Positions 10,164 through 26,504 of a stretch of 64,000 nt of DNA are shown in pieces. Made by a program: the position numbers and the translations under genes. The notes under the pieces were generated by a model. It was not told where the DNA came from. It did no database searches and saw only the letters and a program-made list of their open reading frames with translations. The stretch is from the NCBI RefSeq assembly GCF_900129785.1, contig NZ_FSRC01000001.1, forward strand, positions 558,001 through 622,000. The letters are read 5' to 3'. This stretch comes from Algoriphagus halophilus (GTDB lineage Bacteria > Bacteroidota > Bacteroidia > Cytophagales > Cyclobacteriaceae). How positions within the stretch are numbered: position 1 is the stretch's first letter; each line of letters starts with the position of its first letter.

Positions 10164-10578
10164 GGATTCAAGAAGATTTAGAAGATTGGATTTTTGCAGG
10201 AGATCAGTTGGTGAACACCATTGGTTTGGGTGAATTGGTGGAATATTGAGTTATTGCTTATTCCAGACCCCCTGACCTTAAATGTGGCTAGTTTTTGATA
10301 AGGATGTATTACATTTTAAAAAGGAAGAGTTACAGAATTCTCACATTCTTAGGTACCTACCGAGTATTGCAGTAATAAGAAGGATTTAATAAAATTCGCT
10401 GAGGGTATTTTTTTGTTCTCAATAAATCAGGAATCGATTGGAGAGATTTTTATCGGAAGTTTTACCAATCATCAATTAATTCTGTGTCAATCGCCACGTA
10501 GACTACATTCCTTTTATCTTTGCACTTCAAAAATTTAAAGATGCATCTGAGAACTGATTTAGAATCAACGTCCAAATA
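10164..10578. other. Intergenic region between GH130 and symporter genes
   Basis: A divergent gap of about 415 bases that must hold the GH130 promoter on the minus strand and the symporter promoter on the plus strand. Apart from the TATCTTTG element at 10515 I saw no gene, RNA or stable hairpin. Confidence 0.5.
10515..10522 (+). promoter_or_regulatory. Candidate -7 promoter element of the symporter gene
   Basis: TATCTTTG fits the Bacteroidota -7 consensus TAnnTTTG and lies 56 bases before the symporter ATG. No clear TTG -33 element is found at the expected spacing, so support is partial. Confidence 0.4.
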
Positions 10579-11751
10579 ATGAAAAACCTATTTTCTAATC
10601 TTCTTTTTAAAGTTTTTATAGCCATTGTACTTGGAATCGTTTTTGGTCTCTTTTTACCCGAATCTGTCAATAGGATATTTGCCACCTTCAATGCATTTTT
10701 TGGTCAATTTCTGAATTTTGCCATTCCTTTAATCATTCTGGGATTAATCATGCCGGCAATTTCTGATCTGGGGAAAGGAGCCGGAAAACTCTTATTGCTT
10801 ACTGCTGCCATTGCTTATGGATCTACCTTGTTTTCCGGGTTTATGAGCTACTTTACCTCCTCTACCATTTTCCCATCTTTGTTGGCCTCCCATGTGAACG
10901 AAGCCACTGAAATAGCAGAAGAGGGGAATGATCTAGTTCCTTATTTTAGTATCACGATTCCAGCGGTGATTGACGTGATGTCCTCCCTGGTTTTGGCATT
11001 TGTGATTGGTTTGGGATTGTCCTATCAAGAGAATTCCACTTTGAAAAAGGTAGTGAAGGATTTTGAGAAGATCATCATGCAAGTGATTGAAAATGTGATT
11101 ATTCCACTTTTACCCTTATTTATTTTGGGGATTTTTGCAAACATGGCGTTTAGTGGACAGGTGTATTCCATCCTATCCGTATTCCTGAATATCATCGGGG
11201 TGATCTTTGCCATGCACATTTTCTTATTGATTTTACAATATGTGATTACTGGAGCTATCGTCAAGAAAAATCCGGTGAAGTTATTGTTGACCATGTTGCC
11301 GGCTTATTTCACGGCTTTGGGGACGCAATCCTCCGCTGCCACGATACCAGTGACTTTGGAGCAAGCGGAAAAAAACGGAGTTTCTCCGAAGATCGCAGGC
11401 TTTGTTATCCCACTTTGTGCGACCATACATTTATCCGGAAGTATTATGAAAATTACCGCCTGTGCGATGGCGTTGATGATCTTACAGGGACTTCCTTATG
11501 ACTTTGGAATGTTTGCCGGGTTTATTTTTATGCTTGGAATTGCCATGGTAGCAGCACCAGGAGTGCCGGGTGGAGCAATCATGGCTGCCATTGGTGTACT
11601 TCAGTCCATGCTCGGGTTCAACGAGGAAATGATCGGATTAATGATCGCGTTGTACATTGCGATGGACAGTTTTGGGACTGCTTGTAATGTGACTGGAGAT
11701 GGAGCGATCGCATTGGTGGTGGACCAGGTAACCAAAGATAAAGACCTCTAA
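10579..11751 (+). CDS. Dicarboxylate/amino acid:cation symporter (DAACS family)
   Basis: A 390-residue inner membrane sodium- or proton-coupled symporter of the DAACS/SDF family, which imports glutamate, C4-dicarboxylates or serine/threonine. The sequence is built of hydrophobic helices from residue 5 on. The hairpin and helix regions of the family are visible: GTQSSAATIPVTLEQA (serine-rich reentrant loop HP1), IPLCATIHLSGSIMKI, and GVPGGAIMAAIGVLQSMLG followed by YIAMDSFGTACNVTGDGAIALVVDQV, where DSFGTACNVTGD carries the substrate- and ion-binding residues of TM8. It is slightly shorter than GltP/DctA (about 430). The gene stands alone. A decayed copy of its 3' end lies at 14496-14609. Confidence 0.9.
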   Translation: MKNLFSNLLFKVFIAIVLGIVFGLFLPESVNRIFATFNAFFGQFLNFAIPLIILGLIMPAISDLGKGAGKLLLLTAAIAYGSTLFSGFMSYFTSSTIFPSLLASHVNEATEIAEEGNDLVPYFSITIPAVIDVMSSLVLAFVIGLGLSYQENSTLKKVVKDFEKIIMQVIENVIIPLLPLFILGIFANMAFSGQVYSILSVFLNIIGVIFAMHIFLLILQYVITGAIVKKNPVKLLLTMLPAYFTALGTQSSAATIPVTLEQAEKNGVSPKIAGFVIPLCATIHLSGSIMKITACAMALMILQGLPYDFGMFAGFIFMLGIAMVAAPGVPGGAIMAAIGVLQSMLGFNEEMIGLMIALYIAMDSFGTACNVTGDGAIALVVDQVTKDKDL

Positions 11752-11836
11752 TCAGCTAGGGGTAAATTTGGATGTATTCATCAAACAGGTGACATTTGAT
11801 TTTACTAATCAACCTATCACCAATTTTAGTGTTCCT

Positions 11837-14245
11837 TTAATTAGTTCGCTGAGACTCCTCTTCCGATCCCAATTTTCTTTGTCGAGCTGCTTTTAGGTCT
11901 TGATTACCTAGTGTATAGGTGAGGTTAATCAAAGCAACTCGAGTGTCAAATTGGAGATGATAGTCTGAATTAAAACCAGGAACGTCGATTTTACCTATAA
12001 ATTTATTGGTATGAAAAATATCTTGGATACTTAATCTGGCTTTGAATTTTTGGCTAAATGATTTTTGAATGCCAAGGTCTAAAGAGCCTAGCCAAGGTGC
12101 CCGAGCTAAAGCCTGAATAGATGGTGAACTAATCCATCCAGTTAGCTCTCCAGTCCAACCTTTTTGAAATGCAAAGGTATTGGACATGTTTATCCTACTG
12201 GAAATTTGCTCTACAATAATTGGGTTTTCCTGATAAAGGTAATTAAACCGGCTGTAAAGCCCAGTAAAATTCAATTGCGCATTCCATCCTTTCATGATTG
12301 CAAGAGGATAACTCATGGTAATATTATAGGATTGCGAGGTGCCTACATTATCCGGAGTTCTTTCCGTGCGAATACTATCTACAGGTTGGATGAGGTAAAA
12401 GATCAAATCAGAAACAAAACTTGCACCTATTGAAGTATAAAGTTTGTCTTTGAAACCGTGCTTTAATTCAAGGGAATGGGTGTATTCTGGTTGAAGGAAT
12501 GCATTCCCTCGGCTGTATAAAAAGGGATCTACATAAGATCGGGCTGGGTTCAGGAATTGGTAGCTGGGTCTATTTATTCTATAACTATAGGAGAGAACTA
12601 GGGTGTGATTTTCGGATAGTTTATTAGAGATAAATACACTTGGAAAGACATTTAAATAGTTTCTTTTCACTGTGTTTTCCGTGTTTAGGGATTTTCCTTC
12701 AGAAATAGTATGTTCTGCTCTTAGCCCCATTTGTGCTTGCGTGGATTCGCCTAGTTTGCCGGAGAAGCTGATATAGGCAGCATTCACATTCTCAGTATAG
12801 ATAAAATGGTTTGATAAAATAGGGTCTACAATTAGGTTTCCTTCTTCTCCCTGAAATAAAGTCAAATCATTATCGCTCTCTACAAAAGCAGTTTTAAGGC
12901 CTGCTTCCATATTCCAATTGTTGAATACCACACGGCTATAATCAGCTTTAGCAGTTCTAATGGTGATCGTAGTGGGCATTTCAGTTATAAGACCCTCCCT
13001 GGGTTGGGAAGGTTCCTCGGGTGTATGACTATCAGTCTGTAATGTATTTGAGTATTGTCTTTTGAATTGACCAATATCAAAGTCTGCTGTAAGCTGCCCT
13101 CCATTTTCACCGAATTTATGCTGGAAATTTAGATTGCCTACGTTGTTGGTAGAGATGCTAGAGATTTGTTTTGCAGTGCTAGTTTCTAGGTAATTGATGC
13201 CTTCGTTTCTTTCGAAATCACTACTAGCAGTACCATCTTCTCCATTATTACTCCAGAAACCTGTCCAAACTATACCGATTGTTGTGTTTTTTCCTAAGAA
13301 ATAGTCTGCTCCTGCTTTTGCGTTTTGACCCCAATTATCAAATACAATATAGGTTAATTGGTCAATGTAGTTTTGTTGTCCCCCATTTTCAATAAACTGT
13401 CTGCTGTCTAAATCAAAATATCCGCCTCCTGCATTTGCGCTATAGTTTCCAAAGACATTGATTTTCTTTGCTCGATGGTTAATTTGTAAACTTCCTCTTT
13501 CTCTTTCAAAGCGCCCGGTACCAACTCCGACTGAAATTGATCCATTGGTACCTATGTCATTATTCTCTATCAATTTGATATTGATAATGCCAGAGTTTCC
13601 TGCTGCATCGTACTTTGCAGAAGGGTTCGTTATCAACTCGATCTGATCAATATTATCGCTTGACATGGTACTGAGTAAAATGACCAGATCCTCCATGGAT
13701 AAATAGGTTTGCTTTCCATCCATTTGGACGATTACTCCATCTTTTCCGCGTAATCGGAGGGAATTGTTTTGCCTGTCAATTGTAACTCCTGGAGCTTTCT
13801 CCAAGACCTCAAGTGCAGTAGAGCCACTTGCAATAATGCTATTTGAGACATTGACTACCATTTTATCAATGTATTGTTCAACAAAAGGTCTTTTCTCTAC
13901 GACCATTACCTCCTCAAGCTGCTGACTGTCTTCTTGAAGCTGTAGTGTAATTCCTTCCACAGCTTTCTTTTCATTACTGATAAGTGGTAAATAAACCTGC
14001 TTATACCCCATCATAGAGGCAGAAATAAGGTAGTTTCCATCGGGAATATCAAATATCGTAAAGTTGCCCAAGGTGTCAGTAACTGCGCCTTTGATCAAGG
14101 AAGAGTCTGAAGGAGTCAGCAAAAGCACATTTGCAAAAGATAAAGGAATACCTGATGGTTCAAGGACTTTTCCGGAGATTGATTGGCTTTTAACTTCCAA
14201 AGTCAAAAGTACTGCAGCAAAAAAGAAAAACAGTTTCATAGGCAA
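11837..14245 (-). CDS. TonB-receptor-like outer membrane beta-barrel protein (OMP_b-brl_3 type)
   Basis: An 802-residue outer membrane protein. A signal peptide (KLFFFFAAVLLTLEVKSQ) is followed by a carboxypeptidase-regulatory-like domain at about residues 22-110 (SISGKVLEPSGIPLSFANVLL, GNFTIFDIPDGNYLISASMMGY), a plug-like domain at about 125-230 (ALEVLEKAPGVTID, LRGKDGVIVQMDGKQTYLS, IELITNPSAKYDAAGNSGIINI) and a long beta-barrel to the end. This order is that of the OMP_b-brl_3 group of TonB-dependent-receptor relatives, common in Bacteroidota. No SusD partner is next to it, and the ligand is unknown. The last residues are charged and lack the usual terminal aromatic, which is not rare in this group. 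Upstream lies a long AT-rich gap. Confidence 0.88.
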   Translation of the reverse strand: MPMKLFFFFAAVLLTLEVKSQSISGKVLEPSGIPLSFANVLLLTPSDSSLIKGAVTDTLGNFTIFDIPDGNYLISASMMGYKQVYLPLISNEKKAVEGITLQLQEDSQQLEEVMVVEKRPFVEQYIDKMVVNVSNSIIASGSTALEVLEKAPGVTIDRQNNSLRLRGKDGVIVQMDGKQTYLSMEDLVILLSTMSSDNIDQIELITNPSAKYDAAGNSGIINIKLIENNDIGTNGSISVGVGTGRFERERGSLQINHRAKKINVFGNYSANAGGGYFDLDSRQFIENGGQQNYIDQLTYIVFDNWGQNAKAGADYFLGKNTTIGIVWTGFWSNNGEDGTASSDFERNEGINYLETSTAKQISSISTNNVGNLNFQHKFGENGGQLTADFDIGQFKRQYSNTLQTDSHTPEEPSQPREGLITEMPTTITIRTAKADYSRVVFNNWNMEAGLKTAFVESDNDLTLFQGEEGNLIVDPILSNHFIYTENVNAAYISFSGKLGESTQAQMGLRAEHTISEGKSLNTENTVKRNYLNVFPSVFISNKLSENHTLVLSYSYRINRPSYQFLNPARSYVDPFLYSRGNAFLQPEYTHSLELKHGFKDKLYTSIGASFVSDLIFYLIQPVDSIRTERTPDNVGTSQSYNITMSYPLAIMKGWNAQLNFTGLYSRFNYLYQENPIIVEQISSRINMSNTFAFQKGWTGELTGWISSPSIQALARAPWLGSLDLGIQKSFSQKFKARLSIQDIFHTNKFIGKIDVPGFNSDYHLQFDTRVALINLTYTLGNQDLKAARQRKLGSEEESQRTN

Positions 14246-14495
14246 AAAAGAAAAATTGAAAAAAATTAATATATCAATTGAATAAACTCGTATTTAAAAA
14301 TTAATAAAATACAATTTGAAGTTATAAAATCACAAATACAATATTTCCTATGAAATAATTTTTTTTGAAATGTAAAATGCTAAAAACTAATTATTTGTAT
14401 TAGTTTTATGGATATTTGTTTAGTTTTTAATCTCTAAAAATAGTTATACAATAATTTGAATAATTATAATATAGGAGGGAGCCCATTTCTATAAG
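14246..14495. other. AT-rich intergenic region with small hairpin
   Basis: Very AT-rich sequence upstream of the outer membrane receptor gene. It contains one perfect 9-bp inverted repeat (AAAACTAAT at 14383-14391 and ATTAGTTTT at 14399-14407, 7-base loop). Base composition makes such repeats likely by chance. No gene is visible. Confidence 0.4.
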
Positions 14496-14609
14496 AGGAA
14501 TTGATCCTCTAACCGGAATTTTTGCAGGCTTTATTTTTATGTTAGCAATTGTGATAGTTGCAGAACAGTGGGGGTGGTGGATCAAGTGACGGAAAATAGA
14601 TCTGAATAA
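14496..14609 (+). pseudogene. Remnant of a DAACS symporter 3' end
   Basis: This scrap is a decayed copy of the C-terminal part of a symporter like the one at 10579-11751. One frame reads GIFAGFIFMLAIVIVA (14515-14562), closely matching GMFAGFIFMLGIAMVA of the intact gene. Another frame reads VVDQVT then ENRSE and a stop (14574-14609), matching the intact VVDQVTKDKDL terminus. Between the two blocks about 150 bases are missing relative to the intact gene, and the frame is shifted, so it cannot encode a transporter. No start or earlier symporter sequence is recognisable upstream. It therefore marks an old duplication or recombination followed by deletion. Confidence 0.75.
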
Positions 14610-14731
14610 TTGATTGAATTCAACTTTCTAAAAAAAAGAAGCAAGTATTCAATGGGTTGTATCAAAGGATTTTATCCGGATATGGTTAAATTTAGGTGAG
14701 TTTTTCGCTGTTGATTTTTTAACCATTGTCC

Positions 14732-15832
14732 ATGAATACGATCAAAGTTTTTCTTTCCAGTAGAGTCAATTCTTCGTTTTCCAATTTGGATTCAGGTAAA
14801 TCCCTCAAGGATCTAAGGAAGTTTTTACAAGTTGAATTAGAGAAAGAATTATTCCTCCAAGAGCAAATTTTTGATGTACTCATCAATGAAGGGACTTTTG
14901 ATTCTACTTTGTCTAAGGATGCTTTTGAGAACTGCATGGAGACCTTGAGGTCTTCCCATGTGATCATTATCCTTTACAATGGGGAAGCAGGTTGGCCCAT
15001 TGCAGATTTGGATTCTTCCAATGGGATTTGTCATGAAGAGTATTTGGCAGCCTTGCAGGAGTTCTCTGATATGACCTTTGGCTTGAATATCAGCCAGTTT
15101 TTTAAACTCCCTACCAAAGGACCAGCCTATGAAAGGAATCGAAGTTTTGCAGATGATATGGCCAATGACTTTAAACATTTTGAAACCATTGATGCCAGGG
15201 ACTTTGAGGAATTGAAAGAGAAGTGCCTAATCCAGATCAAAAGGTATCTCTTAAAAGCTTTGGAGAAATCATTTGAAACCCAGAAAAGAGTGGTGGCAGG
15301 TTCCTCGAGTATTCCTGAAACCCTGGACTGGAGCAAACTTTCCTATCCAGAGCGAATTATTGAAATGAAGGAAACCTTGCAAACATCATTGGATAGAAAT
15401 CCTGTTTTTTCGGATTCCATTTGTAATTATTATGCCGTGCCGGATAGCATGTCGGTAGCGGATGCCAGAAACCAGTTAGGGAGGCCTTTTTTATATGAAC
15501 AAAAAGAAATCATAGGAAGCAACAAGTCATCCGGGGTGATTCATTTTATCGCAGTTTATGGTAGGGTGACTTCCTCACAAGCCAAAGGTCTGGTAGGTTA
15601 TCCTGATTTAGCAGTCATCAAAACTCCTTTTGGCTTTTACCTCTGGGAGAAAAACTTACATATTCAGATATTTTTTCTTCAAAGCTGTGTGAACTCGAGT
15701 GTCATCAGATTGAGAATTGGGGAAATAGCCATTTGGCTGAATTCCTCCAGGGAAAAATTGAACATTCAGAAAAGAGCCGAAAAGAGATATAGTATTCTGA
15801 AGGCCATCAATGAGGCGAAAATCACTGAATAA
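14732..15832 (+). CDS. DUF4062-like protein with uncharacterised C-terminal region
   Basis: A 366-residue cytosolic protein. The N-terminal part (about residues 1-120) has the layout of DUF4062, a TIR/SLOG-like alpha/beta domain: a first strand IKVFLSSRVNSSF, a helix, then METLRSSHVIIILYNGEAGW and ICHEEYLAAL. DUF4062 usually occurs in STAND-type or other conflict proteins as a putative nucleotide-binding or effector domain. The rest (about 180-366) is not recognised; it contains strands around VIHFIAVYGRV and IAIWLNSS. ATG at 14732 is chosen over an in-frame TTG at 14726. The next gene starts 46 bases after the stop on the same strand, implying an operon. Confidence 0.65.
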   Translation: MNTIKVFLSSRVNSSFSNLDSGKSLKDLRKFLQVELEKELFLQEQIFDVLINEGTFDSTLSKDAFENCMETLRSSHVIIILYNGEAGWPIADLDSSNGICHEEYLAALQEFSDMTFGLNISQFFKLPTKGPAYERNRSFADDMANDFKHFETIDARDFEELKEKCLIQIKRYLLKALEKSFETQKRVVAGSSSIPETLDWSKLSYPERIIEMKETLQTSLDRNPVFSDSICNYYAVPDSMSVADARNQLGRPFLYEQKEIIGSNKSSGVIHFIAVYGRVTSSQAKGLVGYPDLAVIKTPFGFYLWEKNLHIQIFFLQSCVNSSVIRLRIGEIAIWLNSSREKLNIQKRAEKRYSILKAINEAKITE

Positions 15833-15878
15833 CTCAGTACAGAAGTTGAGATAAAATTTTACTTGAAACCATAGCGCT

Positions 15879-17219
15879 ATGAAACCCTTATGTTTTGTGA
15901 TTATGCCATTTGGGAAAAAACCGGATGCCACTGGAAGGATCATCAATTTTGATCAGGTATATGAAAATTTTATCAAGCCTGTCATTGAAGAATCTGGTTT
16001 GGAATCGATTCGTGCTGACCAGGAAATGATGGGAGGAATTATCCATAAACCCATGTATGAGCGTTTGATTTTATGTGATTTTGCCATCGCTGATTTGACA
16101 ACTGCCAATGCCAATGTCTTTTATGAATTGGGGATCCGATACACTGCTAAGCCATATACCACCTTCAGTATTTTTGAAACCGGTACCAAGATCCCATTTG
16201 ATTTGGTGGATGTCCGGTGTTTCCCGTATACCATTGTGGAGGATGAAATTTCTGAATTGGAAAGTAAAAAAGAGGCTTTAAAGAAATATATCGCTGGAGT
16301 TAGGAAAAGCAAGGTGACCGATAGTCCGGTTTATCAATTATTGGATGGGATAGAATTCAAGCACAACCTTTCCTCTGACAAAGTAGAGATGCTCAGGGAA
16401 AAAGCGAAGCAGGAAAATGATGTCAGTGAGTTAATCCAAGAGGTAGTTGAGTCAAAATCCAACCCGGATAAAGCAGCAGCATTGGCAAAGCTGGAAGAAA
16501 GCCTGCCTGATAAAGAAGATTGGGATGCTTCTTTAGCCATTAATTTCATGTTGGCCTATCGGTCAATAAATGCTTACCCGCAAATGGTTACCTATATCGA
16601 ATCGTTGCCGGACCATTTGAGAACCACCGTCATGGTTCAAGAACAGTATGGGTTTGCATTGAATCGTTCAGGAAATAAAAATAAGGCCATTGATGTACTT
16701 ACCGCGATTTTGGGTGATAAAGGTTCAAATAGTGAGACGCTAGGGATTTTGGGCAGGATTTATAAGGATAAATACATGGAAGCGAAAGGTCAAAATGAAT
16801 TTTTGGCCAAAGGTTTCTTGGATAAGGCCATTGAAATCTATAGCGAGGGCTTTCAATCTGATTTACGTGATTTTTATCCAGGAATAAATGCAGCCACATT
16901 GAAATTTGTAAGAGGGGACCAGGATTCAGCTGGTTTTGCCAATGTGGTGGAATATTCGGTCTTGACCTATTTATCTAAGAAAGACAAAGTGTCAATGAGA
17001 AAAGCACCTTCAAATTTTGATGGGTATTGGCCTCATGCAAGTTTATTGGAGTTAGCCATCCTCCAAAATAATAAGGAGAAAGCATTCACTTATTTGTCCA
17101 ATGCCATTGCTACCGCTCATGAAAGTTGGCAAACAGAATCCACCGCCAATAACCTTGAGTTATATCATTCTCAAGGAGATTGGGTGGCACAGGTTATTCA
17201 GGTTTTAAAGGAGAATTAA
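15879..17219 (+). CDS. TIR/deoxyribosyltransferase-like domain fused to DUF4071 (TRAFs-binding) region
   Basis: A 446-residue cytosolic protein in two parts. Residues 1 to about 120 form an alpha/beta domain of the nucleoside 2-deoxyribosyltransferase/TIR-like superfamily: CFVIMPFGKK, then MYERLILCDFAIADLTTANANVFYELG, where ADLT and the NVFYELG glutamate are typical active-site positions of such nucleotide-base-cleaving folds. Residues about 190-440 are helical repeats resembling DUF4071, the MAP3K TRAFs-binding domain also present in the ASK stress kinases: VQEQYGFALNRSG, ETLGILGRIYKDKY, DLRDFYPGINAATL. It is the second gene of a pair with the DUF4062 protein. Its stop codon overlaps that of the convergent patatin gene. 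An NAD- or nucleotide-degrading sensor/effector role is inferred. Confidence 0.75.
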   Translation: MKPLCFVIMPFGKKPDATGRIINFDQVYENFIKPVIEESGLESIRADQEMMGGIIHKPMYERLILCDFAIADLTTANANVFYELGIRYTAKPYTTFSIFETGTKIPFDLVDVRCFPYTIVEDEISELESKKEALKKYIAGVRKSKVTDSPVYQLLDGIEFKHNLSSDKVEMLREKAKQENDVSELIQEVVESKSNPDKAAALAKLEESLPDKEDWDASLAINFMLAYRSINAYPQMVTYIESLPDHLRTTVMVQEQYGFALNRSGNKNKAIDVLTAILGDKGSNSETLGILGRIYKDKYMEAKGQNEFLAKGFLDKAIEIYSEGFQSDLRDFYPGINAATLKFVRGDQDSAGFANVVEYSVLTYLSKKDKVSMRKAPSNFDGYWPHASLLELAILQNNKEKAFTYLSNAIATAHESWQTESTANNLELYHSQGDWVAQVIQVLKEN

Positions 17220-18364
17220 GAAAATTGTCCATCAAAGTGATACGCTTTCACGGAGTCTTTGGCTGCAGCTTCACCGATTTTATAGAGTTCTTCCCGGTTT
17301 TCTGCGTTGCTCATTTCTATGAGACTTGCCACATCTTTTTCCGTGTAATTTTTACCCAAGCCTAAGCCGTTGAGTTCATTTTCGGTGATAGGGAAATTGT
17401 ATCTAAGATATTTGATCATGGGTTTGCCACCGATGTAATCATCTCTCAATGTCTCAATTTCCATATCTATATAATGGGCAGTAGGGGAGTTGGAGAGCCA
17501 CTGTAGCATAATCTGGTTTTGCCAGCTCGCATCCTGCATCAGCATATCCGGCACATTCATGGCCCAGGTTTTCATCCAGGCTTCTTTGATTTCACCTACT
17601 TGTTTTTTGAATACACTATAACCCGTCCCTACAGAAACCACACTTAATTTATCTTCTCCCATTTCCCAATGGAATGGGAATCCTCTTAAGGTAGCTACCA
17701 TTAGTAAAGTCATGGAAGGATTGTTTGCCATACTCACTCCACCATCCACAAATGCCGCTTGTTGCCCGTCGCCTACATCAATCATTTGCGGTGCAAAATA
17801 GGTAGGAGCGGCACTACTTGCTCTGACCGCCTGCCAAAGCGGGATGTTTTTATTTTTCCCCAAACTGGTGTCAAAAAATTTCCCCTGAGGATGATTGATC
17901 AAAGGCCATACGCTATTGGTGTCAGCTCTTTTAGCGACAATACAAAGACCGGTTTTGATTTGATCGCTACCCAAGGTGATGTCTCCAAAAGCTCCTTTCA
18001 ATGATTTTTCCAACACCGTATAATCGTAATTGGCCTTCAGGAATTTCCAGGTTTGAAGGGGATTCCAAAAGCTATATTTTTTGCCGAAAATCTTTCCTCC
18101 CAAATCCATATAGAGATCTTTAATATCGTCTACTTTCATTCCTATGGCCAAAGCAGTCGCGATAATGGAGCCCGTGGAAGTACCGCCGATTAAGTCAAAA
18201 TGATCACACAAGAGATAATCTTGGCCGTGTTTATTTTGCAGAATGGTCTCGATCTTTTTGAGGTACCCCAAACTCAATGCACCTCGGATTCCTCCTCCAT
18301 CTAAAGAAAGTATGTTTTTGGGTTCACCGGTAAAAGAAAGGTGATCATGCAGTGTCTTTTTCAT
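17216..18364 (-). CDS. Patatin-like phospholipase
   Basis: A 382-residue patatin-family lipid acyl hydrolase. The oxyanion loop (DGGGIRGALSLGYL, from residue 22), the nucleophile elbow GGTSTG with Ser63 and the dyad Asp207 in the DGG motif (AAFVDGGVSMANNPS) are all intact, so the enzyme should be active on membrane phospholipids. No signal peptide is seen. Patatin lipases of this type act as membrane-degrading effectors in CBASS (CapV) and other conflict systems, but also in ordinary lipid turnover. The gene is the last of a minus-strand group with DUF5995 (124 bases upstream) and a pentein gene, and converges with the TIR-like/DUF4071 gene with overlapping stops. No cyclic-nucleotide synthase is nearby. 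Confidence 0.88.
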   Translation of the reverse strand: MKKTLHDHLSFTGEPKNILSLDGGGIRGALSLGYLKKIETILQNKHGQDYLLCDHFDLIGGTSTGSIIATALAIGMKVDDIKDLYMDLGGKIFGKKYSFWNPLQTWKFLKANYDYTVLEKSLKGAFGDITLGSDQIKTGLCIVAKRADTNSVWPLINHPQGKFFDTSLGKNKNIPLWQAVRASSAAPTYFAPQMIDVGDGQQAAFVDGGVSMANNPSMTLLMVATLRGFPFHWEMGEDKLSVVSVGTGYSVFKKQVGEIKEAWMKTWAMNVPDMLMQDASWQNQIMLQWLSNSPTAHYIDMEIETLRDDYIGGKPMIKYLRYNFPITENELNGLGLGKNYTEKDVASLIEMSNAENREELYKIGEAAAKDSVKAYHFDGQFS

Positions 18365-18488
18365 GTTCTAAAAGTCTAAAAATTAAATTCTTATTTAAGT
18401 TACGTTTTTTCCTTGTGGGTATAAAGCTGCGGGTAAGGATTTTGAAGATAGGTCGAATTCAAGTGGGTAGTTGAAATAAAAGGCACAT

Positions 18489-19190
18489 TTAAAAATCAAT
18501 GGCAAGAATCCTATTTCGCTTTAATACACTCCGTTCTAGTTTGGCTCTAAGAATTTCTCGGTGTTCTATTCCTTTTGTTCCCAATAACACGCAAGCTTGA
18601 TCCCAAACTTCTTGTCTCCAATGGGTAATCAGAGAAGATATGAGGTATTCATCCAGGTTACCAAAAACATGATCCATCCATTCCATCAAAAGATCCGAGG
18701 GATTGATCAGTTCATCTTGTACTTGATCTATGGAAGTTGCAATTATTTCATTGACCTTACAATGGTCCTCATAGCGTAACTGCTGCTCTTCACGACTTAA
18801 ATGGGGCCATTCTTGGTCAAGAAGATCAAATAAAGTCAATACCAAGTCATAATTGATATGCGCATTTACTCCCATTAATAAATATTGAACCTGCCGTAAG
18901 TTGAGTTCGGCGGTGCACTGATGCACCTCCTGCCAAATTTTTGGGGAGGTTTTTCCGCAATCATAACATTCCAGGGCATCAAAGTAATAATTGGCAAACC
19001 GATGAAGGAGGGTACTGATCCAAACTCTGTCATGAAACTCATCCATTTCTATCGCTTGAAACATATTTCCAGTCATGAGACGGTAACAACTTAAAAAAAC
19101 CTGCCGATCATCGTTTTTTGTTTTCCAGTCCCTGATAAGGAAATCCATTCGGTTTAACACATCCAAATTAGTTGCCATCACTAGATTCAT
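18489..19190 (-). CDS. DUF5995 family protein
   Basis: A 233-residue helical cytosolic protein. The central segment LLMGVNAHINYDLVLTLFDLL is the signature of DUF5995, together with MTGNMFQAIE, LLHRFANYYFDALECYDCG and a downstream VNEIIATSIDQVQDEL. The conserved histidines and aspartates look like a possible metal or heme site, but no function is established for the family. ATG at 19190 is used; a second in-frame ATG at 19178 is equally possible. The pentein gene ends 26 bases upstream, so the two are probably co-transcribed, with the patatin gene following. Confidence 0.7.
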   Translation of the reverse strand: MNLVMATNLDVLNRMDFLIRDWKTKNDDRQVFLSCYRLMTGNMFQAIEMDEFHDRVWISTLLHRFANYYFDALECYDCGKTSPKIWQEVHQCTAELNLRQVQYLLMGVNAHINYDLVLTLFDLLDQEWPHLSREEQQLRYEDHCKVNEIIATSIDQVQDELINPSDLLMEWMDHVFGNLDEYLISSLITHWRQEVWDQACVLLGTKGIEHREILRAKLERSVLKRNRILAIDF

Positions 19191-19216
19191 TCAATGTTAC
19201 GAGTAAGGGGTTCTGT

Positions 19217-20668
19217 TTAATCTCCCCTCTTGAGATATTTAGAAATGCAATGCACCACCCCCTGTCTTTTAGCGAAGCTATTGAAGTCTCCAAGACGGTG
19301 TACGGTAAAGCCGAAGCTTTCCCAAAGTGCCTCCATATGATCATCCAAAACAGCTAGAGAAGCATATTCTCCATGACCGAATGTAGGTAAATAGACATGC
19401 TTGCCTACCTTTTCACTGTTTTCTACCAAGCAATTGTTGGAAGTGATATGATGCCAATTTCTGACAGAGGCTAGATCATTTTCCCTGGCGCCAAGGTAAA
19501 GGAGGTCTTTCAAAGCGCTATTGATATCTTTGTCATCAGGATTTTGGACGGCAAGGTCTCTCAAATAAGAAATTGGGATTTTTCTACCTGTGAATTCAGG
19601 ATAATGTACCAAAGGGTTTCGGTGAACAATCACCCCTTGCTTTTTAAAAGATCGGGCAATTTCATCATAGGCTTCTTGAAGGTTATGACGACGGTTTGGG
19701 AACCCCAAGAGCTCATTGCCTAACTTGGGAGAGCCGACCATGATTTCAAATTTCCCATCTTCATTCTTCCCGATCAAACTGATAAACATATCCACATGAA
19801 AAATAGGTTGGAATGGACCGGTACCTACTCCCACAATATCCAGAATGTATTCGTCTGATTCTTTATTGCCTACATAAGCTGATATTGGGATTTCTTTTTT
19901 AGTCCCCGCCACGAACATCGGTCTGTTTTTATCCAAAAAATCAGAAAAACTCTGACGGACCAGCTCTTCTATTTGTTGACCTGTATTGACTCTTAGAGGT
20001 AGGGTTTGATCTTGGATTTGATGAATGGTGTCCTGGTAATAGTCTTTTCCCAATATCCAGAAATCATCTGCAACCAGGCAATTTCCACCCTGAAAAATCA
20101 ACGGCGCCTGACTTGCGTTGATGTTGGTGTATTCTTCAATACTGTCTGCCAATAATTGATCTCCGGAACGAGGGAATTCCCAAGGTTCCATTAAATAATA
20201 AGTTTCGTCATAGGCGTCCTTTAATGCCAAATAGGCATCTTCCGCCCAGTCAGTAAAGTCCACATAACTAGGAATAGGAACCCAGGAAATCAAATTGGAT
20301 TCATGGCCTACTGAACTAAACCAGGATTCAATGGTGTCTCGGTCCTGTTCATAATGTACAATGATAAACTTGGTTCCTAAACGAAGCGCTTTGATGACAG
20401 ACCGATAGGCCTCCGTCCTTTCGGAGGCTCCAAAGTGGGGGACAGAAGGAAAAGCGAAAAGAATGGTATCAATTACTCCTTTATAGGAACTGATCAATTC
20501 AGGTGTTTGAAGACCTGGAGTGGGACTTTGGGCCTTTGTTTCAAATCCTGTAGCGGTAGTTTTCCCTCTTGTTTTCCCTGTTTTAAGCTTGTCTCCAAAG
20601 ATGCGCATGTCTTTGGGAGCATCTGGGTGAATTGCAAAAAAGATCGATTGATTAATCATTGATTTCAA
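19217..20668 (-). CDS. Pentein-fold deiminase/amidinotransferase-like protein
   Basis: A 483-residue protein of the guanidine-modifying (pentein) superfamily, which includes peptidylarginine and agmatine deiminases. Visible landmarks are IFQGGNCLVADD (191-202, equivalent to the E/Q-G-G-N-x-L segment with substrate-binding acidic residues), the catalytic His-x-Asp pair at His291/Asp293 (FHVDMFISLIG) and the C-terminal nucleophile Cys474 in GVVHCISKYL. It is about 110 residues longer than agmatine deiminase, mostly through an N-terminal extension and an insertion around 310-400. The substrate is therefore uncertain; free arginine-like metabolites or protein arginines are both possible. It heads the minus-strand group pentein-DUF5995-patatin. 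No signal peptide is seen. Confidence 0.7.
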   Translation of the reverse strand: MKSMINQSIFFAIHPDAPKDMRIFGDKLKTGKTRGKTTATGFETKAQSPTPGLQTPELISSYKGVIDTILFAFPSVPHFGASERTEAYRSVIKALRLGTKFIIVHYEQDRDTIESWFSSVGHESNLISWVPIPSYVDFTDWAEDAYLALKDAYDETYYLMEPWEFPRSGDQLLADSIEEYTNINASQAPLIFQGGNCLVADDFWILGKDYYQDTIHQIQDQTLPLRVNTGQQIEELVRQSFSDFLDKNRPMFVAGTKKEIPISAYVGNKESDEYILDIVGVGTGPFQPIFHVDMFISLIGKNEDGKFEIMVGSPKLGNELLGFPNRRHNLQEAYDEIARSFKKQGVIVHRNPLVHYPEFTGRKIPISYLRDLAVQNPDDKDINSALKDLLYLGARENDLASVRNWHHITSNNCLVENSEKVGKHVYLPTFGHGEYASLAVLDDHMEALWESFGFTVHRLGDFNSFAKRQGVVHCISKYLKRGD

Positions 20669-20751
20669 GTTGATTGAAAAAGTTCGATACTAAAATTTAG
20701 CTGCTTTCAAGAAGAAATCAAAAAAATAAGAGGATGCAAAAAAATAATGTA

Positions 20752-20770
20752 AGGGCATTGGTAATGCCCT
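20752..20770 (-). terminator. Candidate terminator after the DOPA dioxygenase-like gene
   Basis: A perfect 8-bp stem (AGGGCATT and AATGCCCT) with a 3-base loop. On the minus strand it is followed after seven bases by a T-rich run (complement of the A-tract at 20740-20745), consistent with a weak intrinsic terminator for the gene at 20846-21658. Confidence 0.5.
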
Positions 20771-20845
20771 CGAGATTGGATAAGGTTTCCCTAGCGTAAA
20801 ACTCTAACTTATGGTTATCCGTCCCAGGAAAGCATTCGACCTATT

Positions 20846-21658
20846 TTAGGCTCCAATTTTAACAGAGGTCATGGTCAATGAACCTGCCAAGGGTTTATCA
20901 TTGAATAATGAAATCTCCTCATTTTTATCCTGTAACCCGAGGGTGTATAATAAGGGTAAAAAATGCTCGGGTGTAGGAATTGACAGTTGAAAAGCTCTCC
21001 CTTGTTTAGAAAACTGAATTAGGTTTTCATGATCCCTATTCAAGATAAATTCACTCATTTTTTGACTTGCTTCCTCCGCCCAGTCAAAAGCATAATTTTC
21101 GTTCAGTCTTCTCCAATCTACCATTCGTAAATTATGGACTAGGTTTCCACTTCCCACAATCAACACTCCTTTGTTCCGTAATGCTCGAAGTTCCTGTGCT
21201 ATTTGATAGTGTTCTTGTGGGCTTTTTCTGTAATCAATACTCATTTGAATGATCGGGACATTAGCTTCCGGATACATATGCCGGATTACTGACCAGGCTC
21301 CATGGTCCAAACCCCATTGATCATCCAGGTGAACCTCAGAGCTTTTAACCAGTTGCTGGGTTTGTTTGGCAAGAGCCGGACTTCCGGGTGCTGGATATTG
21401 GACCTCATACAAAGCTTTTGGAAATCCACCAAAATCATGGATTGTTGGAGGGAAATCCATCGCAGTGACTTGGGTTCCGGGAGTTTCCCAATGAGCAGAA
21501 ACCACCAGAATGGCTTTGGGCATTTCTATTTCAGAGGATACTTTCCTGAAACCTTTCACAAATTCATTTTCTTCAATGGCATTCATGGGGCTTCCATGAC
21601 CTAAAAAAAGGACTGGCATGGTAGAAGTGTTTCCCAAAGACTCAATAAATTGTTTCAT
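20846..21658 (-). CDS. ygiD: 4,5-DOPA-extradiol-dioxygenase-like protein (YgiD/LigB family)
   Basis: A 270-residue member of the LigB-type extradiol dioxygenases closest to bacterial YgiD, which opens the ring of L-DOPA using a single metal. The metal-ligand motif MPVLFLGHGSPMNAIEENEF (His21), the second block VSAHWETPGT, and GVLIVGSGNLVHNLR plus the late PTPEHFLPLLYTLG histidine are all present, in the family's order and at its usual length (about 260-270). No signal peptide. It is monocistronic, with a hairpin downstream. The physiological substrate in non-pigmented bacteria is unknown; the symbol follows the E. coli homologue. Confidence 0.88.
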   Translation of the reverse strand: MKQFIESLGNTSTMPVLFLGHGSPMNAIEENEFVKGFRKVSSEIEMPKAILVVSAHWETPGTQVTAMDFPPTIHDFGGFPKALYEVQYPAPGSPALAKQTQQLVKSSEVHLDDQWGLDHGAWSVIRHMYPEANVPIIQMSIDYRKSPQEHYQIAQELRALRNKGVLIVGSGNLVHNLRMVDWRRLNENYAFDWAEEASQKMSEFILNRDHENLIQFSKQGRAFQLSIPTPEHFLPLLYTLGLQDKNEEISLFNDKPLAGSLTMTSVKIGA

Positions 21659-21862
21659 CTCAATTGAATTAGCGCTTTTCTAGTGGTATAGACTATGGTT
21701 TTTTAAACCCTTTTGCTTATCCATCTTTGAATTGGTACTTCCTAAATCGAGAAGTTAAAGGACAAGTTCCATTTCTAGGACAAAGATTTTACCAATCATA
21801 TGGACTATTGAGTTTTCAAAAAAGGATAATGAACCCTTTTTAATTTTTGTTTTATCTTGACT

Positions 21863-21902
21863 CTTCTAAAACGAGGTTGAAAATGTCAACACCTTTTAGA
21901 AG
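21863..21902 (+). promoter_or_regulatory. Imperfect hairpin in the leader of the BNR-protein gene
   Basis: CTTCTAAAA (21863-21871) is the exact inverse of TTTTAGAAG (21894-21902), with an inner TTGA/TCAA stem and a five-base loop, together an imperfect stem of about 17 pairs. It ends 38 bases before the ATG at 21941. It could be a leader structure or a protein-binding palindrome. Confidence 0.4.
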
Positions 21903-21940
21903 TTTTCATCTAGATTACTAAAACCCGTCACCTGTCCCAA

Positions 21941-24900
21941 ATGAAGTTTAAGCTTACCTTTTTGTTGCTTTTTGTAGTGATTGGCCATGCTGTTTTTGCT
22001 CAATCTACCGACCTCTCTGGCCTTCAAAACTTGAATGTCAGGAATGTGGGGCCTGCCAATATGAGTGGAAGAATCACGGCCATAGACGTGGTCACTTCAA
22101 ATCCAAAAATCATGTACGTTGGTGCGGCCTCAGGAGGGGTTTGGAAATCTGAGAATGGAGGTTCGGCTTGGAAGCCAGTTTTTGATGATCAACCCACACA
22201 AAATATTGGAGCCTTGGCAATCCAACAGAGTAATCCGGAGGTGATTTGGGTAGGGACAGGAGAGGGGAATCCCAGAAACTCCATGAACTTAGGTATGGGG
22301 GTTTTTAAAAGTCAGGATGGTGGAAAGACCTGGCAACATATGGGGCTAAAGGAAACCAAAACCATTCATCGAATTATCATCGATCCTAAAGATGCCAATA
22401 CAGTGTATGTAGGAGCGATGGGTGATCCATTCACTGCCAACGAACATCGAGGTCTTTATAAAACCACAGACGGAGGGAAAACTTGGGAGAAAATTTTGTT
22501 TTCCAATAATCAATCGGGAATTGCTGATTTAGTCATGCATCCTGAAAACCCAAACATACTTTTTGCAGCACTTTATGAACATAAGCGAACTCCCTATTAT
22601 TTCACTTCGGGCGGTTCTGGTTCAGGTCTTTATGTCACCAAGGATGGAGGGGTAACCTGGCAGCAACAAGGAGAAAATGAAGGATTACCTGCTGGAGAGC
22701 TGGGAAGAATTGGCTTGGCAATTTCCCTGTCCAATCCTGAAAGGATGTATGCAAAAATAGAAGCGAAAAGAAATGCCATCTATAGGAGTGACAATGGGGG
22801 GAATACCTGGCAGTTGATTAATGATGATCCAAAGTTTGCAAATAACAGACCCTTTTATTTTCAGGATTTAGCCATTGACACCGAAGACCCCGACAGGCTA
22901 TATAATATTTACCAGCCTTTGTCAGTGAGTTATGACGGAGGAAAATCATTTGATCCGGTTCCCATGATCCCTGCTGATGAAACCAAAGGAATTCATGCTG
23001 ATTTTCACGCATTTTGGGTCAATCCAAATGATGCACAGCATTTTATAATTGGGGGCGATGGAGGATTAGGAATCACCTATGACCATGGGAAAAGCTGGTA
23101 TTTTCCTGAGTCTATTCCAGTCGCCCAATTTTATCATGTGGGAGTGGACCATGACGTCCCTTACAATGTCTATGGTGGAATGCAGGATAATGGCAATTGG
23201 TCTGGCCCAGCTTATACATGGAAGCGTGGAGGAATAAGGACCTTGTATTGGCAATACCTCGTGGGAGGAGATGGTTTTGATATTGCTCCAGACCTGGATA
23301 ATTCAAGGTTTGGTTATGGCTCTTCTCAAAACGGTGATTTATATCGATATGATAAAATTACCGGCTACTATGTCAGCATTCAACCCCCGGCTCCGGACTT
23401 AGCAACCAGTTTACGGTTTAACTGGAATGCTGGGTTTGCAAAGAATCCCTTTGATTCCAATTCTGTCTATTATGGATCACAATATGTCCATAAGACCTAT
23501 GATAAAGGACGCACTTGGGAAATTATTTCACCGGATTTGACCACCAATAATCCTGCCCATCAAAAGGCAGACTATGGAGGATTGACATTGGATGTATCAG
23601 GAGCTGAACGCTACAATTCGATTTTAACAATTGCTCCAAGTAGCCTAAATGACCAGATTATCTGGGTAGGAACCGATGATGGTCAAGTACAGTTGACTAC
23701 TGATGCAGGAAAGACCTGGAAAAATATTACGTCCAATATCCAGGAAATGCCTGAAGAAGGTTGGGTTGCCCAAATTGAGGCTTCTAGGTATGAAGAAGGA
23801 GCGGCTTGGATGGTGGTCAATAATTATAGAAAGGGTGATTATGCGCCATATCTGTTTCAAACCAAAGACTTTGGGAATACCTGGCATCGGATGGCAGACG
23901 AAGGTCAAGTAAGAGGGTATGCGCTTTCTGTAATCCAAGATCCAGAAGAGTCTGGTTTAGTATTTCTTGGCACCGAACATGGATTATGGATAAGCTTCGA
24001 CGAAGGAGAAAGTTGGGAGCAATTTCAAAATGGATTTCCCTCAGTATCAACCATGGATTTAAAAATTCAAGAACCGGAGTCAGCCCTGATCATCGGGACT
24101 TTTGGTAGAGCAATATGGATCCTAGATGATTTACTTTCTCTTCGGGAAATTGCTTCAGGTAGGCTTAAATCTGGAATTAATGCGATGCCTATGAACGATG
24201 CGGTCCAAGTCAAAGGCTTGTTTATCAATCCTCCAGGCAATATTTGGAGCGGTTTTAATACCACTTTTGAAGGAGAGAATAAAGTGTTCCAACAAACGAA
24301 GATTCCTTTTTACTTGTCAGAAATCCCTGAGGAAAACAGGACGGTAACTGCCAGGATTTATGATGCCGAAAATAGATTGATCAATACGGTGGAATCTTCT
24401 CAATTGGAAAAAGGGCTGAACTATATGATTTGGAAATTGGATGAGCATTCTTCCTCTTTAAGACCGAAAGGGACCGATGAATTTTCAAGAGACATTCCTG
24501 TATTGCCAGGAGAATATAAGATAGTACTTTCCTTTGGGGAGTATCTTGATTCCACCGCTGTCCAGGTAATTCCAGATCCCAGATTTAATCTGGATCCCAA
24601 GGTAGATGTGGAACTGTACAAGTATAGAAAAGCCATTGATGTTCAGGTGAAAAAGCTTGCAGAGGTCTTAGGGTTGATGGATGAAAAAACAAAGGAGGTA
24701 GACCACCTGATTGAAAAATTAGAAGAAGGAGAAAACACGAATCCAAGTTTAGAATTGGCTAAGAACATGAAAGCACAACTCCAGGCTCTTCGGGCCCAGG
24801 GACAAACCCCTAGGCCAGAAAGACAAGTAGGAGCTTGGCAATCCTTTGAATCTTCTCCTTACTCAAAAGTCCAGGAGGTATTAAAAATTGCGGCAGCTCA

Positions 24901-25036
24901 AACTCAACAACCCTCTGTTCAGCATCAGGAAATCTTGAATCAGGCTACTGAATTGGTGGAAGAATATTCTAAAACCGTGGATTCATTTATGGGAATAGAA
25001 TGGAAAACCTTTGAATCGAAAGTAAACCTGGATTAG
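21941..25036 (+). CDS. Secreted BNR/sortilin-like beta-propeller protein
   Basis: A 1031-residue exported protein with a signal peptide (KFKLTFLLLFVVIGHAVFAQ). From residue 25 to about 760 it consists of repeated BNR/Asp-box motifs (S/T-x-D-G-G-x-T-W: KSENGGSAWKPV, KSQDGGKTWQHM, KTTDGGKTWEKI, VTKDGGVTWQQQ, SDNGGNTWQLI, TTDAGKTWKNI), as in sortilin/Vps10-like and sialidase-like propellers. The C-terminal 270 residues include an immunoglobulin-like segment (KLDEHSSSLRPKGTDEF) and a helical tail. Such Bacteroidota proteins are often annotated as glycosyl hydrolase or photosystem-assembly-like, but no catalytic residues are evident and the function is unknown. It lies alone and converges on the AKR-RidA gene seven bases away. 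Confidence 0.82.
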   Translation: MKFKLTFLLLFVVIGHAVFAQSTDLSGLQNLNVRNVGPANMSGRITAIDVVTSNPKIMYVGAASGGVWKSENGGSAWKPVFDDQPTQNIGALAIQQSNPEVIWVGTGEGNPRNSMNLGMGVFKSQDGGKTWQHMGLKETKTIHRIIIDPKDANTVYVGAMGDPFTANEHRGLYKTTDGGKTWEKILFSNNQSGIADLVMHPENPNILFAALYEHKRTPYYFTSGGSGSGLYVTKDGGVTWQQQGENEGLPAGELGRIGLAISLSNPERMYAKIEAKRNAIYRSDNGGNTWQLINDDPKFANNRPFYFQDLAIDTEDPDRLYNIYQPLSVSYDGGKSFDPVPMIPADETKGIHADFHAFWVNPNDAQHFIIGGDGGLGITYDHGKSWYFPESIPVAQFYHVGVDHDVPYNVYGGMQDNGNWSGPAYTWKRGGIRTLYWQYLVGGDGFDIAPDLDNSRFGYGSSQNGDLYRYDKITGYYVSIQPPAPDLATSLRFNWNAGFAKNPFDSNSVYYGSQYVHKTYDKGRTWEIISPDLTTNNPAHQKADYGGLTLDVSGAERYNSILTIAPSSLNDQIIWVGTDDGQVQLTTDAGKTWKNITSNIQEMPEEGWVAQIEASRYEEGAAWMVVNNYRKGDYAPYLFQTKDFGNTWHRMADEGQVRGYALSVIQDPEESGLVFLGTEHGLWISFDEGESWEQFQNGFPSVSTMDLKIQEPESALIIGTFGRAIWILDDLLSLREIASGRLKSGINAMPMNDAVQVKGLFINPPGNIWSGFNTTFEGENKVFQQTKIPFYLSEIPEENRTVTARIYDAENRLINTVESSQLEKGLNYMIWKLDEHSSSLRPKGTDEFSRDIPVLPGEYKIVLSFGEYLDSTAVQVIPDPRFNLDPKVDVELYKYRKAIDVQVKKLAEVLGLMDEKTKEVDHLIEKLEEGENTNPSLELAKNMKAQLQALRAQGQTPRPERQVGAWQSFESSPYSKVQEVLKIAAAQTQQPSVQHQEILNQATELVEEYSKTVDSFMGIEWKTFESKVNLD

Positions 25037-25043
25037 CAGCAAA

Positions 25044-26501: not shown

Positions 26502-26504
26502 GTG

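What the first reader, a model, noticed from the sequence alone, without database searches (positions are those of the whole stretch)
14732..20668. Convergent five-gene cluster resembling an undescribed immune or conflict system
Two small operons meet tail to tail with overlapping stop codons. One encodes a DUF4062-like protein and a TIR/deoxyribosyltransferase-like protein with a DUF4071 region; the other encodes a pentein-fold enzyme, a DUF5995 protein and an intact patatin lipase. DUF4062, TIR-like and patatin domains are recurrent parts of bacterial conflict systems, yet no CBASS cyclase, STAND ATPase, restriction enzyme or toxin-antitoxin pair is present. The gene combination as a unit is not one I know. 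That it is a single system is an inference from adjacency.
Basis: partly seen in the sequence, partly recalled or inferred. Interest (0 to 1): 0.7.

Follow-up and report, generated by a model that had tools for sequence, protein, structure and literature searches.

The report
Three-gene NADase-hub-lipase conflict module
Three of the five flagged genes (a TIR-like enzyme expected to split NAD, a bacterial relative of the animal stress hub ASK1, and a membrane-cutting lipase) look like a mobile bacterial self-sacrifice or anti-virus module, while the other two are probably unrelated neighbours.

Summary
The five ORFs are present where stated, in what is most likely an Algoriphagus chromosome. 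The five-gene unit is not supported; a smaller one is. D (DUF5995) and E (pentein-like) do not travel with the rest: the two close E relatives found sit in unrelated contexts, and D has no ortholog in 37 relatives. A (divergent DUF4062 plus a conserved C-terminal domain), B (TIR/deoxyribosyltransferase-like plus TPR-S/DUF4071, homologous to part of human ASK1) and C (patatin) do. The 3 of 72 Algoriphagus genomes with B all carry C tail to tail with it, in two chromosomal contexts; one lacks A but has another DUF4062 ORF beside C. Another Bacteroidia family has patatin (72% to C), TIR genes and B in a row; B-patatin pairs occur in Rhizobium and Rhodococcus; an Aliarcobacter protein fuses TPR-S to patatin beside an A-family gene and TIR genes. 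DUF4062 was recently reported as a TIR-like antiphage NADase (Swarozyc). Most likely A senses invasion and cleaves NAD+, B relays the signal, C attacks membranes. Parts and class are known; I did not find this combination in print. Defence function is inferred, not shown.

The parts
14732..15832 (+). Gene A: divergent DUF4062 (TIR-like) domain about residues 1-155, long helix 160-193, conserved C-terminal domain about 200-367; putative catalytic Glu105 (numbered from TTG 14726)
15879..17219 (+). Gene B: TIR/deoxyribosyltransferase-like N-terminal region (D72 and E83 invariant in 31 rows) plus TPR-S and MAP3K_TRAF_bd; C-terminal part homologous to human ASK1 (MAP3K5)
17216..18364 (-). Gene C: patatin-like phospholipase with intact GTSTG (Ser63) and DGG (Asp207) motifs; tail to tail with B
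18489..19190 (-). Gene D: DUF5995 protein; adjacent, probably not part of the module
19217..20668 (-). Gene E: pentein-like (weak PAD match only); adjacent, probably not part of the module

Best explanation
A-B-C (14732-18364) is a compact, laterally moving bacterial conflict module, probably anti-phage and acting by abortive infection. Proposed steps: (1) A, a DUF4062 TIR-like enzyme on a helical stalk, is held inactive until its C-terminal domain meets an invader-made structure (inferred by analogy with Swarozyc). (2) Active A cleaves NAD+ (inferred from family and the conserved Glu105). (3) B, whose TIR/deoxyribosyltransferase-like domain keeps an invariant D/E pair and whose TPR-S scaffold was predicted elsewhere to read NAD+-derived signals (recalled), amplifies or relays the signal (inferred). 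(4) C, the patatin, is released to cut membrane lipids and stop the cell before the invader matures (inferred from family, association and the TPR-S-patatin fusion). Shown here: domain make-up, intact motifs, recurrent association, and different chromosomal places. Not shown: any activity or phage phenotype.
For: Association: B is in 3 of 72 Algoriphagus genomes and C at 88% or more is in the same 3 (in G001 as two contig-end pieces), tail to tail in all 3. The G039 stretch matches the window (10000-27000 by blastn; window ORFs of 120 aa or more by blastp) only over B-C. G161, another Bacteroidia family: ThsB_TIR protein, patatin 72% to C, TIR_2 protein and B in a row on one strand. Rhizobium leguminosarum plasmid: SLATT protein, DUF3380, patatin 36% to C, B-type protein with TPR-S. 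Rhodococcus plasmid: nSTAND1-WD40 protein, B-type with TPR-S, patatin, the last two ORFs overlapping. Aliarcobacter plasmid: 680-aa TPR-S plus patatin fusion beside an A-family gene and ThsB_TIR. Equal longest-contig lengths over 3 kb: A-B 5, A-C 4, B-C 9 against shifted-length means 0.29, 0.23, 0.40. A-family: CxxE Glu motif in 98 of 102 proteins, the other 4 being short, 219-253 aa. DUF4062 as antiphage NADase: PMC13174449, abstract, first part of Results and passages read.
Against: B-type genes often lack a patatin: G284, G337, G278, G043 and G044 have none in the fetched stretch, nor do Rhizobium, two Agrobacterium, Paraburkholderia and Pseudomonas plasmids, most of which show TIR or DUF4231/SLATT partners instead. 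A is missing beside B-C in G039 and G161. Only 3 of 13 A-family loci hold a B, one of them being G001. Only 2 of 6 plasmid patatin hits have a B. PADLOC's CBASS-phospholipase match of C is not diagnostic: a patatin of a conserved chromosomal locus scores the same. The fusion's nucleophile elbow is not a plain GxSxG. No phage data.
Confidence: 0.6

Rival explanations
1. The true unit is B-C only (an ASK1-like TIR/TPR-S hub controlling a patatin effector). A and other DUF4062 or TIR genes are interchangeable input modules or independent single-gene (Swarozyc-like) defences that happen to share the island.
For: B-C persists in G039 without A (a different DUF4062 ORF lies by C) and in G161 with TIR genes instead. 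A occurs without B in 10 of 13 loci.
Against: A-B adjacency in the window and G001, equal contig lengths A-B 5 and A-C 4 over 3 kb, A with B in L064 and L067, and the A-family gene beside the TPR-S-patatin fusion in Aliarcobacter.
Confidence: 0.25
2. C is an ordinary lipid-metabolism patatin and its place by B is hitchhiking after one transfer within the genus.
For: 12 of 72 Algoriphagus genomes have a 56-59% patatin; the 3 of these 12 that I inspected share one chromosomal context. One C-type patatin, in G453, is broken and has no B in the 30 kb fetched. In the patatin tree, rows without a known neighbour lie among the B-linked ones.
Against: B-patatin pairs recur in another Bacteroidia family, Alphaproteobacteria and Actinomycetota, and a TPR-S-patatin fusion exists in Campylobacterota. 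C is more identical to the B-linked patatin of a distant family (72%) than to the other patatins of its own genus (56-59%).
Confidence: 0.12
3. The five genes are one system.
For: E-D-C are on one strand with gaps of 26 and 124 bases.
Against: No other locus examined keeps D or E with A, B or C.
Confidence: 0.03

Closest known systems
Swarozyc (DUF4062 TIR-like NADase defence; PMC13174449, preprint 2026)
   Same: A has a DUF4062-type TIR-like domain with a conserved Glu, a long helix and a C-terminal domain of its own
   Different: Swarozyc is described as working from a single DUF4062 gene; A comes with B and C, and A's C-terminal domain could not be compared with the KpSwz auxiliary domain
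TPR-S / ASK-signalosome-related NAD+-signal conflict systems (Burroughs and Aravind 2020, J Bacteriol e00365-20; recalled, not held; cited for the ASK origin in PMC8195603, passages seen)
   Same: B is a TIR-like plus TPR-S protein; its relatives lie in TIR-rich neighbourhoods, some with SLATT-type proteins
   Different: Here the effector is a patatin and the partner a DUF4062 enzyme; whether that paper lists this combination could not be checked
CBASS with patatin effector (CapV)
   Same: C matches CapV structures (best E 2.8e-20) and has patatin catalytic motifs
   Different: No CD-NTase among the proteins scanned; C scores 146 against the NCBIfam CBASS_lipase cut-off of 200
Thoeris
   Same: TIR-type enzyme plus separate effector; ThsB_TIR proteins neighbour relatives of B and C
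   Different: No ThsA-type protein among the five genes; the effector is a patatin

Membership tests
Swarozyc / DUF4062 NADase | DUF4062 (PF13271) domain | tested here: met
   Window protein itself no hit at 0.01; 5 of 10 family members pass the cut-off, the other 5 match below it
Swarozyc / DUF4062 NADase | Conserved catalytic Glu | tested here: met
   The Glu lies 4 residues before the end of the DUF4062 match in 4 of 5 A-family members (the fifth match ends earlier in the profile), the same offset as the second Glu of TEIE in the G039 DUF4062 ORF; 98 of 102 keep the motif. Identity with KpSwz E97 is inferred
Swarozyc / DUF4062 NADase | HTH/winged auxiliary domain that binds phage portal | not testable with these tools
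   KpSwz sequence not found; fold search off
Swarozyc / DUF4062 NADase | Works as a single gene | not testable with these tools
   needs a phage assay
TPR-S / ASK-type hub | TPR-S and MAP3K_TRAF_bd domains with a TIR-like N-terminus | tested here: met
   PF20308 4.1e-25, PF13281 1.2e-39; ASK1 5ulm 1.1e-20; PADLOC TIR effector model 9.1e-10. The N-terminal 174 residues alone hit no Pfam family at 0.001
TPR-S / ASK-type hub | Recognises an NAD+-derived ligand | not testable with these tools
   prediction recalled from literature
CBASS | CD-NTase in the operon | tested here: not met
   none among the 5 candidate genes and 15 flanking proteins scanned with Pfam
CBASS | Effector passes the CBASS_lipase equivalog cut-off | tested here: not met
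   146.4 bits against 200
Thoeris | ThsA with SIR2/SLOG or other ThsA effector | tested here: not met
   no such match in the five genes

The most novel reading that the evidence does not exclude
A patatin phospholipase gated by an NAD+-derived signal: DUF4062/TIR-like enzymes make the messenger, an ASK1-like TPR-S hub reads it, and the lipase is the executioner. That is a CBASS-type effector driven by a Thoeris-type signal without any nucleotide cyclase, with the hub-lipase pairing present in four bacterial phyla and the hub shared with the animal ASK stress-death pathway.
Probability: 0.3. Interest if true: 0.8.

Novelty: new variant of a known kind. Interest (0 to 1): 0.6.

Why it matters
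It links three things so far treated apart: DUF4062 NADases, ASK1-like TPR-S hubs and patatin effectors. It gives a small, testable locus for how bacterial relatives of the animal ASK regulatory region work, and the TPR-S-patatin fusion offers a one-protein way to ask what the TPR-S domain binds. It also warns that PADLOC 'CBASS phospholipase' matches can be ordinary patatins or parts of cyclase-free systems.

Tried and rejected
Five-gene unit: rejected on E and D contexts. CBASS: rejected, no cyclase among the proteins scanned and a sub-threshold equivalog score. PADLOC phospholipase match as evidence: rejected after a control patatin from a conserved chromosomal locus scored the same. Viral contigs: no A relative; 96 B-like loci, best 80 kept, all matching within residues 1-211 only, 27-46% identity, not followed further; 8 distant patatins, not followed. 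Solved structures gave no A relative (best E 0.53). Bacteroidota-type promoters: one strict pattern gave no site in 14000-22000. Family of G161: only 12 genomes, the one hit being G161. Burroughs and Aravind 2020 not held. The counts of B and patatin per locus first came from a mechanical ORF picker, which missed some genes in G+C-rich loci; I repeated them with tblastn and they held.
Full report
What is there. The window lies at 558001-622000 of contig C1 of a 4.98-Mb genome. The start of A is better placed at ATG 14732, because homologs begin there. B and C overlap by 4 bases at their stops; in G001 the gap between the two ORFs is 20 bases and in G039 23 (coordinates), so the overlap itself is not conserved.

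Gene A. No Pfam match at 0.01 and no PADLOC or NCBIfam match at 0.1. A protein search gives 102 relatives, most of them full length. Of 10 A-family members scanned, 5 pass the DUF4062 cut-off and 5 match below it. The alignment of 32 members has an invariant Glu105 in a CxxE motif; the motif is found in 98 of 102 relatives, the 4 others being short (219-253 aa). Its offset from the end of the DUF4062 match equals that of the second Glu of a TEIE motif in a plain DUF4062 ORF in 4 of 5 members compared; in the fifth the match stops earlier in the profile. The AlphaFold2 model (mean pLDDT 86, pTM 0.60) shows alternating strands and helices over residues 6-154, a helix 160-193, and a mixed alpha/beta part 207-367. 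This layout resembles the one described in words for KpSwz: TIR-like domain, stalk, auxiliary domain. No structural search could be run.

Gene B. MAP3K_TRAF_bd and TPR-S. A profile of 31 rows finds human ASK1 structures 5ulm and 8qgy at 1.1e-20 and 2.9e-20 over profile positions from about 176 on. The search kept 4537 relatives and listed 120; 109 of these 120 match a strict ADL..NxNV(F/L)(Y/F)ELG pattern, and D72 and E83 are invariant in the 31-row alignment. I read the N-terminal part as a TIR/deoxyribosyltransferase-like domain; the link to the catalytic residues of deoxyribosyltransferases is recalled, and the tool support is the PADLOC TIR effector match at 9.1e-10. The N-terminal 174 residues alone hit no Pfam family at 0.001.

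Gene C. Patatin with GTSTG at 61-65 and DGG at 207-209; best PDB relative CapV, 2.8e-20. Many inner branches are weak (12 of 35 starred), and rows without a known neighbour lie among the B-linked ones.

The genus survey. A is in 2 of 72 Algoriphagus genomes at E <= 0.001, B in 3 of 72 at E <= 1e-60. C matches 19 of 72 at E <= 0.001: 3 at 88% or more, 12 at 56-59%, 4 weaker. The same 3 genomes have B and C. In G001, A, B and the end of C are on one contig and most of C is on another, whose end overlaps the first by 163 bases with 2 mismatches, so I take them as one gene; the short piece is 82% and the long piece 91% identical to C. There the order is SDF-A-B-C-OMP, whereas the window has SDF-OMP-A-B-C. 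In G039, B and C are tail to tail in an unrelated neighbourhood, without A, with a 125-aa DUF4062 ORF (PF13271, 53 bits) divergent from C.

D and E. E is in 3 of 38 relatives: the window, G017 (79%) and G001 (76%, another contig); neither of the two others has A, B, C or D in the fetched 19 and 11 kb. D matches 13 of 38 genomes, but outside the window gene all matches are distant (26-29%), one of them a second copy in the window's own genome. D and E are therefore neighbours, not demonstrated parts.

Beyond the genus. In 395 class genomes, B-type proteins at E <= 1e-40 are in 7, the window's included. G161 has a ThsB_TIR protein, patatin (72% to C), a TIR_2 protein and B in a row, plus a QueC-like ORF nearby by eye. 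G284, G337 and G278 have TIR-type neighbours and, in G337, a SLATT protein, but no patatin; the last two lie on contigs under 7 kb. G043 and G044 hold a different paralog (see noticed items). Patatins of 57% or more to C in the same 395 genomes: G000, G161, G044 (the 56-59% kind) and a broken one in G453 without B in the fetched 30 kb.

Plasmids. C-like patatins at E <= 1e-40 are in 6 records; 2 of 6, Rhizobium leguminosarum and Rhodococcus, have a TPR-S B-type gene directly next to the patatin, the other 4 have no B in the stretch. The Rhodococcus patatin has an N-terminal SLOG-like stretch, below the Pfam cut-off (20.3 against 28.2), which would fit a nucleotide ligand. B-type genes are in 16 records: 10 Rhizobium with equal scores, 2 Pseudomonas, and one each of Aliarcobacter, Agrobacterium sp., Paraburkholderia and Agrobacterium leguminum. 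I viewed one of each of these 6 kinds; 1 of 6, Aliarcobacter, has a patatin domain within about 10 kb. There the patatin gene is a 680-aa fusion: TPR-S at 35-124 (7.4e-15) and patatin at 249-506 (6e-15), next to an A-family gene that is split over two frames and a ThsB_TIR gene, with a 43%-identical B about 9 kb off. Its nucleophile elbow is not a plain GxSxG.

A-family loci. The scan of 84,980 species genomes, limited to three peptide patterns, gave 13 loci. Of these, 3 hold a B-type gene (L059, which is the G001 contig; L064; L067), and L059 and L067 (Bradyrhizobium) also a patatin, the latter 62% identical to the B-linked one of Rhizobium leguminosarum. Among others, neighbours I scanned include TIR_2 (L062, L070), GmrSD (L065) and SLFN_AlbA_2 (L061); I scanned chosen ORFs, not all, and none in L060, L063, L066, L068, L069 or L071.

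Contig-length test. The lists give the longest contig of each protein cluster. Equal lengths: A-B 6, A-C 5, B-C 10 in all (shifted-length means 0.72, 0.71, 0.88); over 3 kb, 5, 4 and 9 (means 0.29, 0.23, 0.40). Two contigs (35,460 and 11,105 bases) appear in all three lists. This is indirect: the contigs themselves could not be read. Lists: A 102 of 102, B the 120 listed of 4537, C 119 of the 120 listed of 7972 (one row without a contig).

Literature. PMC13174449 (abstract, first part of Results and passages) reports DUF4062 as a TIR-like NADase family and KpSwz as a portal-triggered abortive defence; it says some DUF4062 genes lie in operons with diverse enzymes, and a word search of its main text found neither patatin nor TPR. 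PMC8195603 (passages) states that ASK signalosome components stem from bacterial conflict systems. That TPR-S was predicted to read NAD+-derived signals is recalled from the abstract of Burroughs and Aravind 2020, which is not held. PMC9503650 (passages) says SLATT is predicted to be an ADP-ribose-derivative-regulated effector. PMC6690266 (passages) describes the Aliarcobacter plasmid.

Judgement. The association of B with a patatin recurs in kind (Bacteroidota, Pseudomonadota, Actinomycetota, and as a fusion in Campylobacterota) but is not universal: TIR and SLATT-type partners are at least as common in what I saw. Much of the survey is biased, since Rhizobium leguminosarum and Rhodococcus came in through the patatin and Bradyrhizobium through A. 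I hold A-B-C as a conflict module likely, its defence role plausible, and the NAD+-signal-to-lipase mechanism a reasoned guess.

Noticed in passing
L048-L053, L102, L103 (Algoriphagus genomes G017, G021, G010, G014, G023, G022, G044, G043): A distant B paralog sits in one conserved chromosomal context, beside a 676-678-aa ORF that looks peptidase-like by eye, in these 8 genomes, perhaps a domesticated member. No patatin was found in L102 and L103 nor by profile in L048-L053.
   Followed up: partly
L046, L047, L089: A 56-59% patatin, beside what look by eye like EtfA/EtfB genes in the 3 contexts inspected, is present in 12 of 72 Algoriphagus genomes; the one tested scores like C on PADLOC's CBASS phospholipase model.
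   Followed up: partly
L136, L137, L141, L100, L067: A TIR - QueC-like - (lyase or hypothetical) - TIR - PfkB kinase gene set lies beside B-type genes on three rhizobial/agrobacterial plasmids; QueC-like genes also near B in G161 (by eye) and in Bradyrhizobium (PF06508).
   Followed up: no
L135 (Aliarcobacter plasmid, 14228-21150): PMC6690266 lists this patatin and a TIR gene as invasion and immune-avoidance genes; the TPR-S fusion and the A-family, ThsB_TIR and TIR neighbours fit a bacterial conflict cluster better.
   Followed up: partly
L139 (Paraburkholderia) and L064: CHAT-type proteins near B- or A-family genes: L064 has a CHAT domain ORF (PF12770) between a TPR-S gene and A; L139 has a similar-looking ORF upstream of B (by eye).
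   Followed up: no
window 29359-30159: Weak PADLOC CARF-model match (7e-6) on the minus-strand ORF.
   Followed up: no
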